Source: Roseibacillus persicicus (GTDB taxonomy: Bacteria; Verrucomicrobiota; Verrucomicrobiia; Verrucomicrobiales; Akkermansiaceae). Taken from it: 64,000 nucleotides of DNA. Below the pieces are notes generated by a model that did not search any database, was not told the DNA's origin, and was given only the letters and a program-made list of their open reading frames with translations. This document shows, piece after piece, positions 56,540 through 59,931 of this stretch. The DNA is taken from assembly GCF_014651675.1 (NCBI RefSeq), contig NZ_BMXI01000010.1:62001-126000 (forward strand). The letters are read 5' to 3'. How positions within the stretch are numbered: position 1 is the stretch's first letter; the number at the start of each line of letters is the position of its first letter. A program made the translations under genes and the position numbers.

Positions 56540-58420
56540 ATGGCAGACGAGAAACAGCGGAAAACTTTGGAAGAACGGCATGGCATGTCGGACTTGGAGC
56601 GATTGCGGCATTCCTGCGCCCACGTGTTGGCGACCGCGATCGCGCGAATTTGGCCTGATGTGCAGTTCGCAGCGGGGCCTCCGGTCGACGGAGGGTTCTA
56701 CTATGATATGCAGTTGGAGCACCGCATCTCGCCCGATGACTTTGAACAGATCGAGGCGGAGATGAAGAAGATCGTGAAGGAGAATCAGACCTTCGAACGC
56801 ATCGTGGTTTCCCGTGACGAGGCTATGGCCATGGCCAAGAGCGGTCGGTTGGCGGCGAATGGCGAGCGCGAGGTGGAGTCGATTTTCAAGGTGGATTTGC
56901 TCAATAGCATTCCCGACGGGGAAGAGATTTCGATCTTCAAGAACGGCGACTTTTGGGACCTTTGTGCCGGACCTCACGTGGGACGGACTGGCAACTGCAA
57001 GGCCCACAAGCTGATGAGCGTCGCCAGTGCCTTTTACAAAGGGGACAAGGACAATCCCCAGCTTCAGCGAGTTTATGGAACTTGTTTCCCGAACAAGACC
57101 CAGCTCAATGAGCACCTCGAGCGCCTGGAGGAGGCCAAGAAGCGTGACCACCGCAAACTGGGTCGCGAGATGGGTCTCTTCACTTTCGACGAAATGGTGG
57201 GGCAGGGGCTTCCGCTGTGGAAGCCGAAGGGTGGTCTCGTGCGTCGCGAGTTGCAGAACTTCATTACGGCGGAGCTCGACAAGCAAGGTTACTCGCAGGT
57301 CTTCACTCCGCATATAGGTAAGCTGGACCTCTACCGCACCAGCGGACACTTTCCCTACTACGAGGACAGCCAGTTCCCGCCCATGGCCGACCGTGATGTC
57401 TGGCAGAAACTGGCGGAGGAAAAATCCGATTGCGGAACTTTGCTGAACGGTCTGCGCGATGGCGAGATTGACGGCTTCATGCTGAAGCCCATGAACTGCC
57501 CGCACCACATCAAGATCTACGCCAGCGACCGTCACAGTTACCGCGACCTGCCGATCCGTCTGGCGGAGTTCGGCACGGTTTATCGCTGGGAGCAAAGTGG
57601 CGAGCTCGGGGGACTGACCCGCGTGCGGAGCTTCACCCAGGACGACGCCCACCTTTTCTGCACGCCCGACCAAGTGGCGGCAGAGATTCAGGGATGTCTG
57701 GGACTCGTGAAGACCGTCCTCGGCACTCTCGGGATGGAGGATTACACCGTGCGCCTTTCGCTGCGCGACCCGGATTCCGACAAATACATCGGCGACCCGG
57801 CGAATTGGGACAAGGCTGAAGATGCCTTGCGCGAAGCGGTCAAGGTGATGGGAGTCGAGGCCATCGAGGAGCCGGGAGAAGCGGCCTTCTACGGGCCGAA
57901 AATCGACTTCGTGGTCAAAGACGTCATCGGTCGCGAGTGGCAGCTAGGCACCGTGCAGGTGGACTACAACTTGCCCGAGCGCTTTGACCTTTCCTACATC
58001 GGAAGCGATAACAAGCCGCACCGCCCTGTCATGATCCACCGCGCGCCCTTCGGTTCGCTGGAGCGCTTCACCGGATTGCTCATCGAGCACTTCGAAGGGA
58101 AGTTCCCGACGTGGTTGGCGCCGGAGCAAGTTCGCGTTTTGCCCATCTCCCAGCAGTTCAATGAGGAGGCGGAAAAGATAGTGGAAAAGCTCGCTGAGAT
58201 TGGCGTTCGGGTGAAGCTGGACGGCAGCGGCGACAAGGTGGGGGCCAAGATTCGCCTTGCGAGGCTGGATCGAGTGCCTTATATGTTGGTCCTAGGTGCA
58301 CGCGAGGTTGAGAATAATCAAGTGAGTGTGCGCCACCGGGACCGCGAGGACCTCGGAACCCAATCGGTGGATGACTTTGTTGCAAGTATACAAAAAGAAA
58401 TTTCTGAACGGTCACTTTGA
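56540..58420 (+). CDS. thrS: Threonyl-tRNA synthetase without TGS domain
   Basis: Class II synthetase charging tRNA(Thr). 626 residues from ATG 56540, preceded by GGGAG at the right distance; the longer frame from 56429 lacks sense. The editing domain begins almost at once (LRHSCAHVLATAIARIWPDV, with GGFYYD and DLCAGPHVGRTG), so the usual 60-residue N-terminal TGS domain is absent. The catalytic core is complete: TSGHFPYYEDS, LKPMNCPHHIKIYASD, YRWEQSGELGGLTRVRSFTQ, DDAHLF, FYGPKIDF. About 30 extra residues (after SQFPP to DGFM) lie before the KPMNC motif. The anticodon domain FPTWLAPEQVRVLPISQQF follows. infC lies 141 bases downstream. Confidence 0.95.
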   Translation: MADEKQRKTLEERHGMSDLERLRHSCAHVLATAIARIWPDVQFAAGPPVDGGFYYDMQLEHRISPDDFEQIEAEMKKIVKENQTFERIVVSRDEAMAMAKSGRLAANGEREVESIFKVDLLNSIPDGEEISIFKNGDFWDLCAGPHVGRTGNCKAHKLMSVASAFYKGDKDNPQLQRVYGTCFPNKTQLNEHLERLEEAKKRDHRKLGREMGLFTFDEMVGQGLPLWKPKGGLVRRELQNFITAELDKQGYSQVFTPHIGKLDLYRTSGHFPYYEDSQFPPMADRDVWQKLAEEKSDCGTLLNGLRDGEIDGFMLKPMNCPHHIKIYASDRHSYRDLPIRLAEFGTVYRWEQSGELGGLTRVRSFTQDDAHLFCTPDQVAAEIQGCLGLVKTVLGTLGMEDYTVRLSLRDPDSDKYIGDPANWDKAEDALREAVKVMGVEAIEEPGEAAFYGPKIDFVVKDVIGREWQLGTVQVDYNLPERFDLSYIGSDNKPHRPVMIHRAPFGSLERFTGLLIEHFEGKFPTWLAPEQVRVLPISQQFNEEAEKIVEKLAEIGVRVKLDGSGDKVGAKIRLARLDRVPYMLVLGAREVENNQVSVRHRDREDLGTQSVDDFVASIQKEISERSL

Positions 58421-58561
58421 CCGTGTCGTCCACTTTTGCGCTCAACGATGAACACTCTATTGTTAATCGGGTAGCCTTTCGAAATCCTGCAGGGTTACGT
58501 TTTTCTTAAAAAGAGGAACATATCCTGCGGTTTCAACAACTGAACCAAAACCACAAAAGCC

Positions 58562-59242
58562 ATAGCTAAGAAAAAGAGACCGAAAAGACAGCGGAGAGAA
58601 ATCATCCGGATTAACGACAAGATCCGCGCCAACCGGGTGCGAGTACTTGCCCCCGATGGAGCTCAGCTGGGAGTGATGGACCTGCGCGATGCCGTGAAGG
58701 CGGCGAAAGAACGGGGTCTAACTTTGGTGGAAGTGGCAGGAAAAGTAGATCCTCCGGTCTGCCAAATCGTTGACTACGGCAAGTGGCGCTACGATCAGTC
58801 CAAGCGGAAGAAGAAAAAGGATACCACCACCAAGATGAAGGAGGTGAAGTTCCGCGTCCGGACCGAAGAGCACGACTACAATATCAAGATGGGTCGCCTC
58901 GAGGAGTTCTTGGATTCTGGTTTCAAAGTTCGGGTTCAGCTGCAATTCCGTGGTCGCGAAAACGCGCACAAGGAGTTGGGTGTGGAAGTTCTCAAGAAGG
59001 TTAAAGAAGATGCCAAGCTGATGGGCAACTGCGACCAAGAGCCCCGGATTGCGGGACGAGCGGTCAATATGGTGCTTTCTCCCTTGCCGAAAGGGCAGCG
59101 CAAGCGCCGCTTCAAGCTCATCCACGGTGACCTCATCGATCCTGATGAAGACTACGAGGATGAGGATGAAGATTTCGAAGATGACGACCACGCTGACGAC
59201 GATCACGCGGAGGACGCCGATCACTCCGACGACGAGGATTAG
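58562..59242 (+). CDS. infC: Translation initiation factor IF-3, probable ATA start
   Basis: IF-3 binds the 30S subunit and rejects non-canonical start codons. The IF-3 N-domain INDKIRANRVRVLAPDGAQL, the LGVMDLRDAVKAAKERGLTL region and the C-domain KEVKFRVRTEEHDYNIKMGR are all present. The frame is open from 58511, but the only ATG/GTG/TTG before the core is GTG 58637, which would delete INDKIRA. ATA 58562 gives (M)AKKKRPKRQRREI, a common IF-3 beginning, so I place the start there. E. coli infC likewise uses AUU, allowing self-repression. The C-terminus carries a 35-residue Asp/Glu/His tail. The HAD gene follows two bases later. Confidence 0.88.
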   Translation: MAKKKRPKRQRREIIRINDKIRANRVRVLAPDGAQLGVMDLRDAVKAAKERGLTLVEVAGKVDPPVCQIVDYGKWRYDQSKRKKKKDTTTKMKEVKFRVRTEEHDYNIKMGRLEEFLDSGFKVRVQLQFRGRENAHKELGVEVLKKVKEDAKLMGNCDQEPRIAGRAVNMVLSPLPKGQRKRRFKLIHGDLIDPDEDYEDEDEDFEDDDHADDDHAEDADHSDDED

Positions 59243-59244
59243 TC

Positions 59245-59931
59245 ATGGCCGCGAGCGACCGGCTCTTACTTTTCGACATTGACGGCACTCTGGTTGATAC
59301 CGGAGGGGCCGGAATGGCGGCCTTGGTGGATGCCACCCGTGAGATCTTTGGAGACGATGGTCCTCAACTGGATTTGGCGGGGGCCACCGATAGCGGCTTG
59401 TTGAAAAACATCTATCGGGCCTTTGGTCGCGAAGAGGATGAGGTGACCACCGCGCGCTTCTTTGACCTTTATCTCGCTCGACTGGAGCTCAATCTGCAGG
59501 ACGCTTGCTTCGGCGGGCGGGTCTTGGATGGGGTAATCGAGATCCTGAAGGAGGTCGAGGCGGCGAAAGTCAGCAAAGGTCTTCTAACCGGGAACATCGC
59601 TGCCGGTGCCGAGGTGAAAATGAGGCACTATGGGATGGATGGGCACTTCGCCTTTGGCGCCTACGGCGACGATCATCACGATCGCAATTTGCTGGGGCCT
59701 ATCGCTCTTGAGCGGGCGAAAAGTCTCTTGAGGCGAGAGTTCGATGCGAGCGAGACCATCGTGGTGGGGGACACGCCGAAGGATATTTGGTGCGCTCAAG
59801 CGTTTGGCGCCAAGTCGATCTGCGTGGCCACCGGCAGTTTCACCGCTGAGGAGTTGGAAAAAGAGGGAGCGGATGTCGTCTTTGAGGATTTTTCAGAAGT
59901 AGAACCGGTTCTATCCCAGCTGTTAGGGTAG
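59245..59931 (+). CDS. HAD-family phosphatase
   Basis: 228 residues of haloacid dehalogenase phosphatase, phosphoglycolate-phosphatase type: motif I LLLFDIDGTLVDTGG, motif II GLLTGNIA, motif III lysine in LERAKSLLRREFD, motif IV IVVGDTPKDIWCAQAFG. Cap domain between 18 and about 85. Substrate unknown. It starts two bases after infC, so it is probably co-transcribed with it. Confidence 0.88.
   Translation: MAASDRLLLFDIDGTLVDTGGAGMAALVDATREIFGDDGPQLDLAGATDSGLLKNIYRAFGREEDEVTTARFFDLYLARLELNLQDACFGGRVLDGVIEILKEVEAAKVSKGLLTGNIAAGAEVKMRHYGMDGHFAFGAYGDDHHDRNLLGPIALERAKSLLRREFDASETIVVGDTPKDIWCAQAFGAKSICVATGSFTAEELEKEGADVVFEDFSEVEPVLSQLLG

What the first reader, a model, noticed from the sequence alone, without database searches (positions are those of the whole stretch)
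58511..58640. infC appears to start at ATA
The conserved IF-3 N-domain (INDKIRA) precedes the first GTG. The frame is open from 58511, and within it ATA 58562 is followed by GCT AAG AAA AAG, matching the usual MAKKK beginning. Known: E. coli infC starts at AUU so that IF-3 represses itself. A switch to AUA would be the same logic evolved with another codon.
Basis: partly seen in the sequence, partly recalled or inferred. Interest (0 to 1): 0.72.

Follow-up and report, generated by a model that had tools for sequence, protein, structure and literature searches.

The report
Translation factor gene starting at ATA
The gene for initiation factor IF3 in this bacterium very probably begins at the rare codon ATA instead of ATG, and its relatives keep the same habit with ATA, ATC or ATT, a known trick by which IF3 most likely limits its own production.

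Summary
infC in this window (58562-59242, +) very probably begins at ATA 58562. The claimed open frame is wrong: an in-frame TGA lies at 58541-58543, six codons before the ATA. It is neither a sequencing error nor peculiar to this genome. Of 138 genomes of the order searched I read 109: ATA 39, ATC 29, ATT 21, GTG 20, ATG 0. Where a GGAGG lies upstream, an in-frame ATA/ATC/ATT sits 5-10 nt behind it in 107 of 161 loci, against 11 and 7 in the other frames. ATA is 1.9% of Ile codons in these genes but 39 of 89 non-GTG start sites. At least 19 third-base changes occurred, none to G. Against: in the window the ATA has no Shine-Dalgarno, while ATC 58604 has an SD-like GGAGA 7 nt upstream; coding-type variation ahead of that ATC favours the ATA. 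Best explanation: translational self-repression by IF3, as in E. coli (AUU); Streptomyces has AUC, and S. aureus infC was mapped to AUA (PMC13009471). Autoregulation was not tested. Fresh parts: the habit spans much of the phylum, and the window's genus keeps it without a normal SD. A new member of a known kind.

The parts
58562..58564 (+). ATA, proposed start codon of infC
   Evidence: only codon one base from ATG between in-frame TGA 58541 and GCT 58565; homologous codon is ATA/ATC/ATT/GTG and never ATG in the 109 genomes of the order that were read
58562..59242 (+). infC, translation initiation factor IF-3, 226 aa, with an acidic C-terminal tail
   Evidence: TIGR00168 178.6 bits against a cut-off of 60; PF05198 and PF00707; single copy
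58541..58543 (+). in-frame TGA upstream of the start; bounds the open frame
   Evidence: translation; two of three congeners have TAA 4 and 6 codons before their ATA, the third is open for longer
58544..58561 (+). A-rich stretch ACCAAAACCACAAAAGCC directly before the start; no Shine-Dalgarno at normal spacing
   Evidence: duplex energy with the anti-SD +2.2 kcal/mol, and +0.4 to +2.2 in the four genomes of the genus; 49 of 89 ATA/ATC/ATT genomes of the order have -6 or better
58511..58516 (+). AAGAGG, SD-like but 45 nt from the ATA; similar purine blocks in two of three congeners; role unknown
   Evidence: sequence; leaders
58601..58606 (+). ATC ATC, rival near-cognate starts inside the tail, with GGAGA before them (GGAG ends 7 nt before ATC 58604)
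   Evidence: duplex energies -5.4 (58601) and -6.6 (58604)
58610..58630 (+). INDKIRA, conserved start of the IF-3 N-domain, before the first in-frame canonical start (GTG 58637)
56540..58420 (+). thrS, threonine-tRNA ligase, upstream neighbour as in E. coli (its own start codon not examined)
   Evidence: TIGR00418 E 2.4e-204; E. coli order thrS-infC

Best explanation
infC is translated from AUA at 58562 by initiator tRNA. The first two bases pair with the CAU anticodon and the third (A against C) does not. IF3 disfavours 30S complexes with such a third-base mismatch, so when free IF3 is plentiful its own mRNA is started poorly, and when IF3 is scarce the AUA start is used more: a homeostatic loop. 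What is under selection is the class 'AUN, not AUG', which is why A, C and T interchange over evolution. Supported here by comparison: the place of the start, the conservation of the class and the exclusion of AUG within the order. Inferred from E. coli and other bacteria: the repression by IF3.
For: In-frame TGA six codons upstream, and in that gap only ATA is one base from ATG; two congeners have TAA 6 and 4 codons before the ATA. Coding evidence right behind the ATA and ahead of the rival ATCs: over 12 codons the six pairs of congeners sum to 19 synonymous and 4 non-synonymous codon differences (pairs not independent), where about 22-24% synonymous would be expected; just upstream of the ATA a 2-nt indel separates window and R. 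ishigakijimensis. A GGAGG was found before the N-domain in 161 of 265 unique loci (E. coli among the 265): in-frame ATA/ATC/ATT at 5-10 nt in 107, ATG in 2; ATA/ATC/ATT in the other frames 11 and 7. ATA is 20 of 1027 Ile codons in the infC bodies but 39 of 89 ATH start sites. Tree: minimum 20 changes of start codon, 19 among ATA/ATC/ATT, one to GTG, none to ATG; if the third base could become any other base, 19 changes without G would have chance (2/3)^19, about 0.0005 (simple arithmetic). Outside the order, choosing among ATN and NTG codons by SD energy alone, 50 of 90 loci give ATT/ATC/ATA and 0 give ATG. E. coli control: TTGGAGGAATAAGGT then ATT.
Against: I saw no experiment on a member of this phylum. 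In the window and its three congeners no SD stands before the ATA (+0.4 to +2.2 kcal/mol), while ATC 58604 and ATC 58601 inside the tail have -6.6 and -5.4; by SD alone those ATCs would win in the window. In 34 of 89 ATH genomes of the order an ATG lies at the place of ATC 58601 (four codons before the conserved Asn); in 14 of the 34 it has the better duplex energy of the two, though all 14 are weaker than -6. R. ishigakijimensis has a TTG 13 codons before its ATA in an open frame with duplex energy -7.8. Sister families have ATG and genus g3 has GTG, so a non-AUG start is not indispensable. The start sites were assigned by a score that I wrote, with nine overrides by hand.
Confidence: 0.78

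Rival explanations
1. The ATA is the start, but it only sets a fixed low rate of synthesis; IF3 does not feed back on it in this group.
For: No test of feedback in this phylum was seen. Sister lineages have ATG and genus g3 GTG. The window's genus also lacks an SD, as if the site were simply weak.
Against: IF3 is the factor that screens start codons, and the same gene carries a near-cognate start in E. coli (control), Streptomyces (PMC5472188, passages) and S. aureus (PMC13009471, passages). A merely weak start could equally be AUG with a poor SD, yet AUG is absent from the 109 genomes read.
Confidence: 0.12
2. The protein starts further down, at ATC 58604 or 58601 (also near-cognate codons), or at GTG 58637, and the basic tail is not translated or is made only as a minor long form.
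For: GGAGA stands just before ATC 58604 at SD spacing (-6.6 kcal/mol; 58601: -5.4). 34 of 89 ATH genomes have ATG at the place of 58601. GTG 58637 is the first standard start.
Against: Coding-type substitution in the 12 codons ahead of ATC 58601 within the genus (19 synonymous, 4 not); over 48 within-genus pairs of the order (genera g3 and g23 left out) 148 synonymous and 108 not. Of the 34 genomes with that ATG, 2 have an SD of -6 or better before it and 14 before the upstream ATH codon, the 2 among them. In the other 55 genomes the place of 58601 is ATC in 7, ATT in 1, CTG in 1 and otherwise not start-like (CAA, CAG and others). GTG 58637 would cut off INDKIRA and has -0.7.
Confidence: 0.08
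3. A sequencing error: the true codon is ATG, or an upstream ATG is lost by a frameshift.
For: The window's genome is a draft (92 contigs).
Against: Three congeners, among them R. ishigakijimensis KCTC 12986 (L210), read ATA at the same place, and 39 of 109 genomes of the order have ATA.
Confidence: 0.01
4. The site is an ordinary conserved Ile inside a longer protein that starts upstream.
For: ATA, ATC and ATT all code for Ile, and some relatives have long open frames upstream.
Against: The in-frame stop lies 1-8 codons upstream in 66 of 109 genomes, and 93 of 109 have no ATG/GTG/TTG upstream of the site. ATA is 39 of 89 at the site against 20 of 1027 elsewhere in the gene.
Confidence: 0.01

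Closest known systems
E. coli infC with AUU start and IF3 autorepression (Butler 1986/1987, Sacerdot 1996: seen only in the reference list of PMC5472188)
   Same: Same gene behind thrS, near-cognate AUN start in place of AUG, same factor encoded.
   Different: AUA not AUU; no SD at normal spacing in the window's genus, while E. coli has GGAGG. The next gene in the window is a HAD-like hydrolase, not rpmI-rplT.
Staphylococcus aureus infC with AUA start (PMC13009471; passages read)
   Same: Same codon for the same gene; the authors write that it likely enables autoregulation.
   Different: There the start was seen by retapamulin ribosome profiling and has a predicted extended SD; here it rests on comparison and has no SD at normal spacing.
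Streptomyces infC with AUC start, and sigR with a GTC start repressed by IF3 (PMC5472188; passages read)
   Same: Near-cognate start; infC start said to be misannotated in most Streptomyces species.
   Different: Different codon and phylum.

Membership tests
translation initiation factor IF-3 (infC) | both IF3 domains over curated cut-offs | tested here: met
   TIGR00168 178.6 bits against 60; PF05198 94.5 against 26.9 and PF00707 99.2 against 34.8
infC genes with a near-cognate (AUN, not AUG) start | no standard start codon at the beginning of the frame; AUN at the conserved start | tested here: met
   by comparison, not by experiment
infC genes with a near-cognate (AUN, not AUG) start | Shine-Dalgarno at normal spacing, as in E. 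coli | tested here: not met
   window ATA +2.2 kcal/mol; -6 or better in 49 of 89 ATH genomes of the order; as I see it not a strict requirement of the kind
IF3-autorepressed infC | expression falls with extra IF3, and AUG in place of the native codon removes this | not testable with these tools
   needs a reporter
IF3-autorepressed infC | AUG excluded at the start over evolution | tested here: inconclusive
   Met within the order: 0 of 109 genomes read with AUG, 19 changes among A, C, T and none to G. Not met in sister families of the class, which have ATG

The most novel reading that the evidence does not exclude
In the window's genus (that of Roseibacillus ishigakijimensis) infC is started at AUA with no Shine-Dalgarno at normal spacing, in an A-rich leader: a self-limiting gene that depends on a near-cognate codon alone, with initiation helped by something else such as ribosomal protein S1, the distant purine block or the ribosome terminating at the upstream TGA. 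A further twist not excluded is a second near-cognate start at ATC 58604 with its own SD-like GGAGA, giving a short form without the basic tail. Across the phylum the class of start codon, not the codon, is what selection keeps.
Probability: 0.5. Interest if true: 0.45.

Novelty: new member of a known kind. Interest (0 to 1): 0.33.

Why it matters
It adds a phylum to those in which IF3 seems to police its own start codon, and shows by comparison that AUA, AUC and AUU replace each other within an order while AUG is avoided, a natural test of the autoregulation idea. It also suggests that gene callers which allow only ATG, GTG and TTG will place infC starts wrongly in these genomes (I did not look at their annotation). 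Sister lineages with ATG, GTG or apparently CTG give matched contrasts.

Tried and rejected
Rfam over the window (gathering) and over 58300-58750 (permissive) gave no leader element, only a chance snoRNA match at E = 4. RNA folding gave z = -1.16 for the window leader, -0.08 (L209) and 0.67 (L028); the L210 piece in the same call was placed too far downstream and says nothing about the leader. A small GGTT...AACC hairpin between the distant AAGAGG and the ATA can be drawn by eye in the four genomes of the genus, but the folding gives no support beyond shuffles and I do not claim it. A first leader alignment used the wrong strand of L060 and was repeated with L209.

I tried to see whether genes of this window generally use an SD. 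The first test equalled its control (25 against 26 of 50 at -6), and a positional count gave only a slight excess at -18 to -7 in 43 ORFs. So I cannot say that an SD is the rule in this genome; its lack before infC may be ordinary. In one search I labelled position 58598 as ATC; it is GAA. The ATC codons are 58601 and 58604, and one search gives their energies, which speak against my reading and are reported. My confidence was lowered from 0.83 to 0.78 for that reason.

My first anchoring regex missed many loci (66 without anchor) and was replaced by a profile built from alignment A1. Start assignment used a score of SD energy and following codons, nine overrides by hand (L009, L042, L048, L053, L059, L062, L079, L203, L208) and, for loci dropped as duplicates of others, a pattern of the codons behind the site. 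L048 (genus g3) has both a GTG shared with its genus and an ATA with a better-placed SD; I counted it as GTG. L061 (same genome as L028) was dropped before the count. 29 of the 138 genomes were not read (not fetched, or without a full match). The tree is a FastTree of IF3 alone with midpoint root, so the number of changes is approximate. The 80 named loci were looked at and used, but are not in the count of 109.

Full report
What is there. The window lies in a draft genome of 92 contigs (G000:C10:62001-126000). Its genus g1 includes G001, whose contig of 52,192 bases has the same length as, and infC at the same place as, record NZ_JAENIO010000029.1, Roseibacillus ishigakijimensis KCTC 12986. 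The gene at 58562-59242 is infC, present once. Upstream is thrS; downstream, at 59245, an ORF with resemblance below cut-off to HAD-type phosphatases.

The frame. Read in the frame of infC, 58511 gives K R N I S C G F N N stop: a TGA at 58541-58543. The statement that the frame is open from 58511 is wrong. From 58544 the codons are ACC AAA ACC ACA AAA GCC ATA GCT AAG AAA AAG. No ATG, GTG or TTG occurs in frame before GTG 58637, which lies behind the conserved INDKIRA. Of the codons between TGA and GCT 58565 only ATA differs from ATG by one base. Further in, ATC 58601 and ATC 58604 do so too.

Is the tail translated? Over the 12 codons between the ATA and ATC 58601, the six pairs among the four genomes of genus g1 differ synonymously in 19 codons and non-synonymously in 4 (sum over pairs, not independent), where random change would give about 22-24% synonymous. 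Over 48 within-genus pairs of the order (genera g3 and g23 left out, pairs of equal tail length only) the sums are 148 and 108. Single pairs vary: L005/L025 have 0 and 8, and the long low-complexity extensions of genus g23 show no such excess. Upstream of the ATA the leaders of window and R. ishigakijimensis differ by a 2-nt indel.

Relatives in the order. infC was found in 57 of 58 relatives and 111 of 112 genomes drawn from the order, 138 different genomes together. I read the start region of 109 of these: ATA 39, ATC 29, ATT 21, GTG 20, ATG 0. All 20 GTG are one genus, g3; one of its contigs has the length that I recall for the Akkermansia muciniphila type strain, but the name comes from no call. 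Distances from the in-frame stop to the site run from 1 to 84 codons, 8 or fewer in 66. 93 of 109 have no ATG/GTG/TTG upstream of the site, and 22 of 109 have none between stop and the conserved Asn. 34 of the 89 ATH genomes have an ATG four codons before that Asn, where the window has ATC 58601; 2 of these 34 have an SD of -6 or better before the ATG, and 14 (the 2 included) before the upstream ATH codon.

Shine-Dalgarno test. Without regard to the codon I took every GGAGG within 130 codons before the conserved Asn in 265 unique loci (all fetched loci, E. coli included). 161 had one with in-frame codons behind it. An in-frame ATA/ATC/ATT 5-10 nt behind it was present in 107 (spacing mostly 8 or 6), ATG in 2, GTG/TTG/CTG in 9. 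In the two other frames ATA/ATC/ATT were present in 11 and 7. The loci are related, so these are not independent counts. E. coli infC, the positive control, reads TTGGAGGAATAAGGT-ATT. Within the order 49 of 89 ATH sites have a duplex energy of -6 or better.

Not an ordinary Ile codon. In the bodies of these 109 genes ATA is 20 of 1027 Ile codons; in 50 long ORFs of the window 45 of 902. At the start site it is 39 of the 89 ATH codons.

Evolution. On a tree of the 109 IF3 domains the start codon changes at least 20 times (shuffled labels 49-66): 19 times among ATA, ATC and ATT, once to GTG, never to ATG. If the third base could become any other base, 19 changes without G would have probability about 0.0005.

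The rest of the phylum. infC was found in 154 of 154 genomes drawn from the phylum. In 90 loci from outside the order I chose among ATN and NTG codons by SD energy alone (-6.4 or better, at least 7 codons before the Asn): 50 gave ATT (25), ATC (19) or ATA (6), 2 CTG, 2 TTG, 0 ATG; 29 had no such SD but an ATG in frame, 7 neither. 23 of the 29 belong to families f7, f9, f13, f14, f16 and f17 of the window's class. Several loci titled Chthoniobacterales or Spartobacteria, and L132 of family f10, have CTG CAA before the conserved Ile-Arg, apparently a CTG start; others of that kind have ATT or ATA there. So the trait is widespread and has been left several times.

The window's own genus. In its four genomes no SD stands at normal spacing (+0.4 to +2.2 kcal/mol); the region is A-rich. 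A purine block (AAGAGG in the window, AAGGAGAG and GGGGAG in two congeners) stands about 45 nt upstream of the ATA. In R. ishigakijimensis a TTG follows this block in an open frame (-7.8), which could be an alternative start in that species. In the window GGAG ends 7 nt before ATC 58604 (-6.6) and 4 nt before ATC 58601 (-5.4). By SD alone these ATCs would be preferred; the variation ahead of them and the homology with SD-bearing relatives favour the ATA. A minor short form from the ATC is not excluded. Folding gives no convincing structure.

How it works. That IF3 represses near-cognate starts, including that of its own gene, is established for E. coli and used for sigR in Streptomyces (PMC5472188, passages read). 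S. aureus infC starts at AUA by ribosome profiling and its authors write that this likely enables autoregulation (PMC13009471, passages read). Listeria infC starts at ATT, and a reporter for another Listeria gene gave ATG > ATA > ATT (PMC13068326, passages read). E. coli and B. subtilis infC start at AUU (PMC1805508, passages read). The same mechanism is the most economical reading here; it is inferred.

Is it new? AUA for infC is in print for S. aureus. A search for Verrucomicrobia with infC and start codon gave one paper, on heat shock in Chlamydia (listing only); infC with noncanonical start and phyla gave none; 'AUA start codon' with infC gave only the S. aureus paper. Other searches listed no survey of infC starts in this phylum that I recognised from titles and abstracts. 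The library holds open-licence papers only. I file it as a new member of a known kind, with the drift among AUA, AUC and AUU and the SD-less version as the fresh parts.

Noticed in passing
L129, L131, L133, L135, L137, L138, L141, L143, L145-L152, L154, L156-L162 (families f7, f9, f13, f14, f16, f17): These sister families of the class have an in-frame ATG and no SD-placed ATA/ATC/ATT start before the IF3 domain, in several directly behind the stop of the upstream frame: an apparent loss of the non-AUG start.
   Followed up: partly
L265, L269, L271, L273, L276-L279, L281, L283, L286-L288, L132: In these Chthoniobacterales-like genomes infC seems to start at CTG (CTG CAA), with the codon before it varying and an SD-like GGAG about 11-12 nt upstream.
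   Followed up: partly
L002, L012, L032-L034, L036-L038, L040-L042, L044-L048, L052, L053, L055, L096 (genus g3): 20 of 20 genomes of genus g3 have GTG CC at the start of infC, with little or no SD before the GTG; L048 also has an ATA with a better-placed SD.
   Followed up: partly
L021, L026, L031, L043, L049-L051, L054, L056, L057, L194, L197, L198 (genus g23): IF3 of this genus carries about 80-109 residues, rich in Pro, Gly and Asn, between an SD-spaced ATA/ATT start and the conserved Asn of the IF3 N-domain (17 in the window).
   Followed up: no
window 59138-59239: The window's IF3 ends in a strongly acidic tail (DPDEDYEDEDEDFEDDDHADDDHAEDADHSDDED) beyond the part matched by TIGR00168.
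   Followed up: no
window 59240-59247: infC is followed after 2 nt by a HAD-like hydrolase gene, not by rpmI-rplT as in E. coli.
   Followed up: no
G183:C69 and G183:C54: One genome of the phylum (G183) has two infC matches, one scoring far above the other listed matches (274.9 bits); possibly a contaminant.
   Followed up: no
L108 (start region): A tandem ATT ATG at the start of infC, so that either codon could be used.
   Followed up: no
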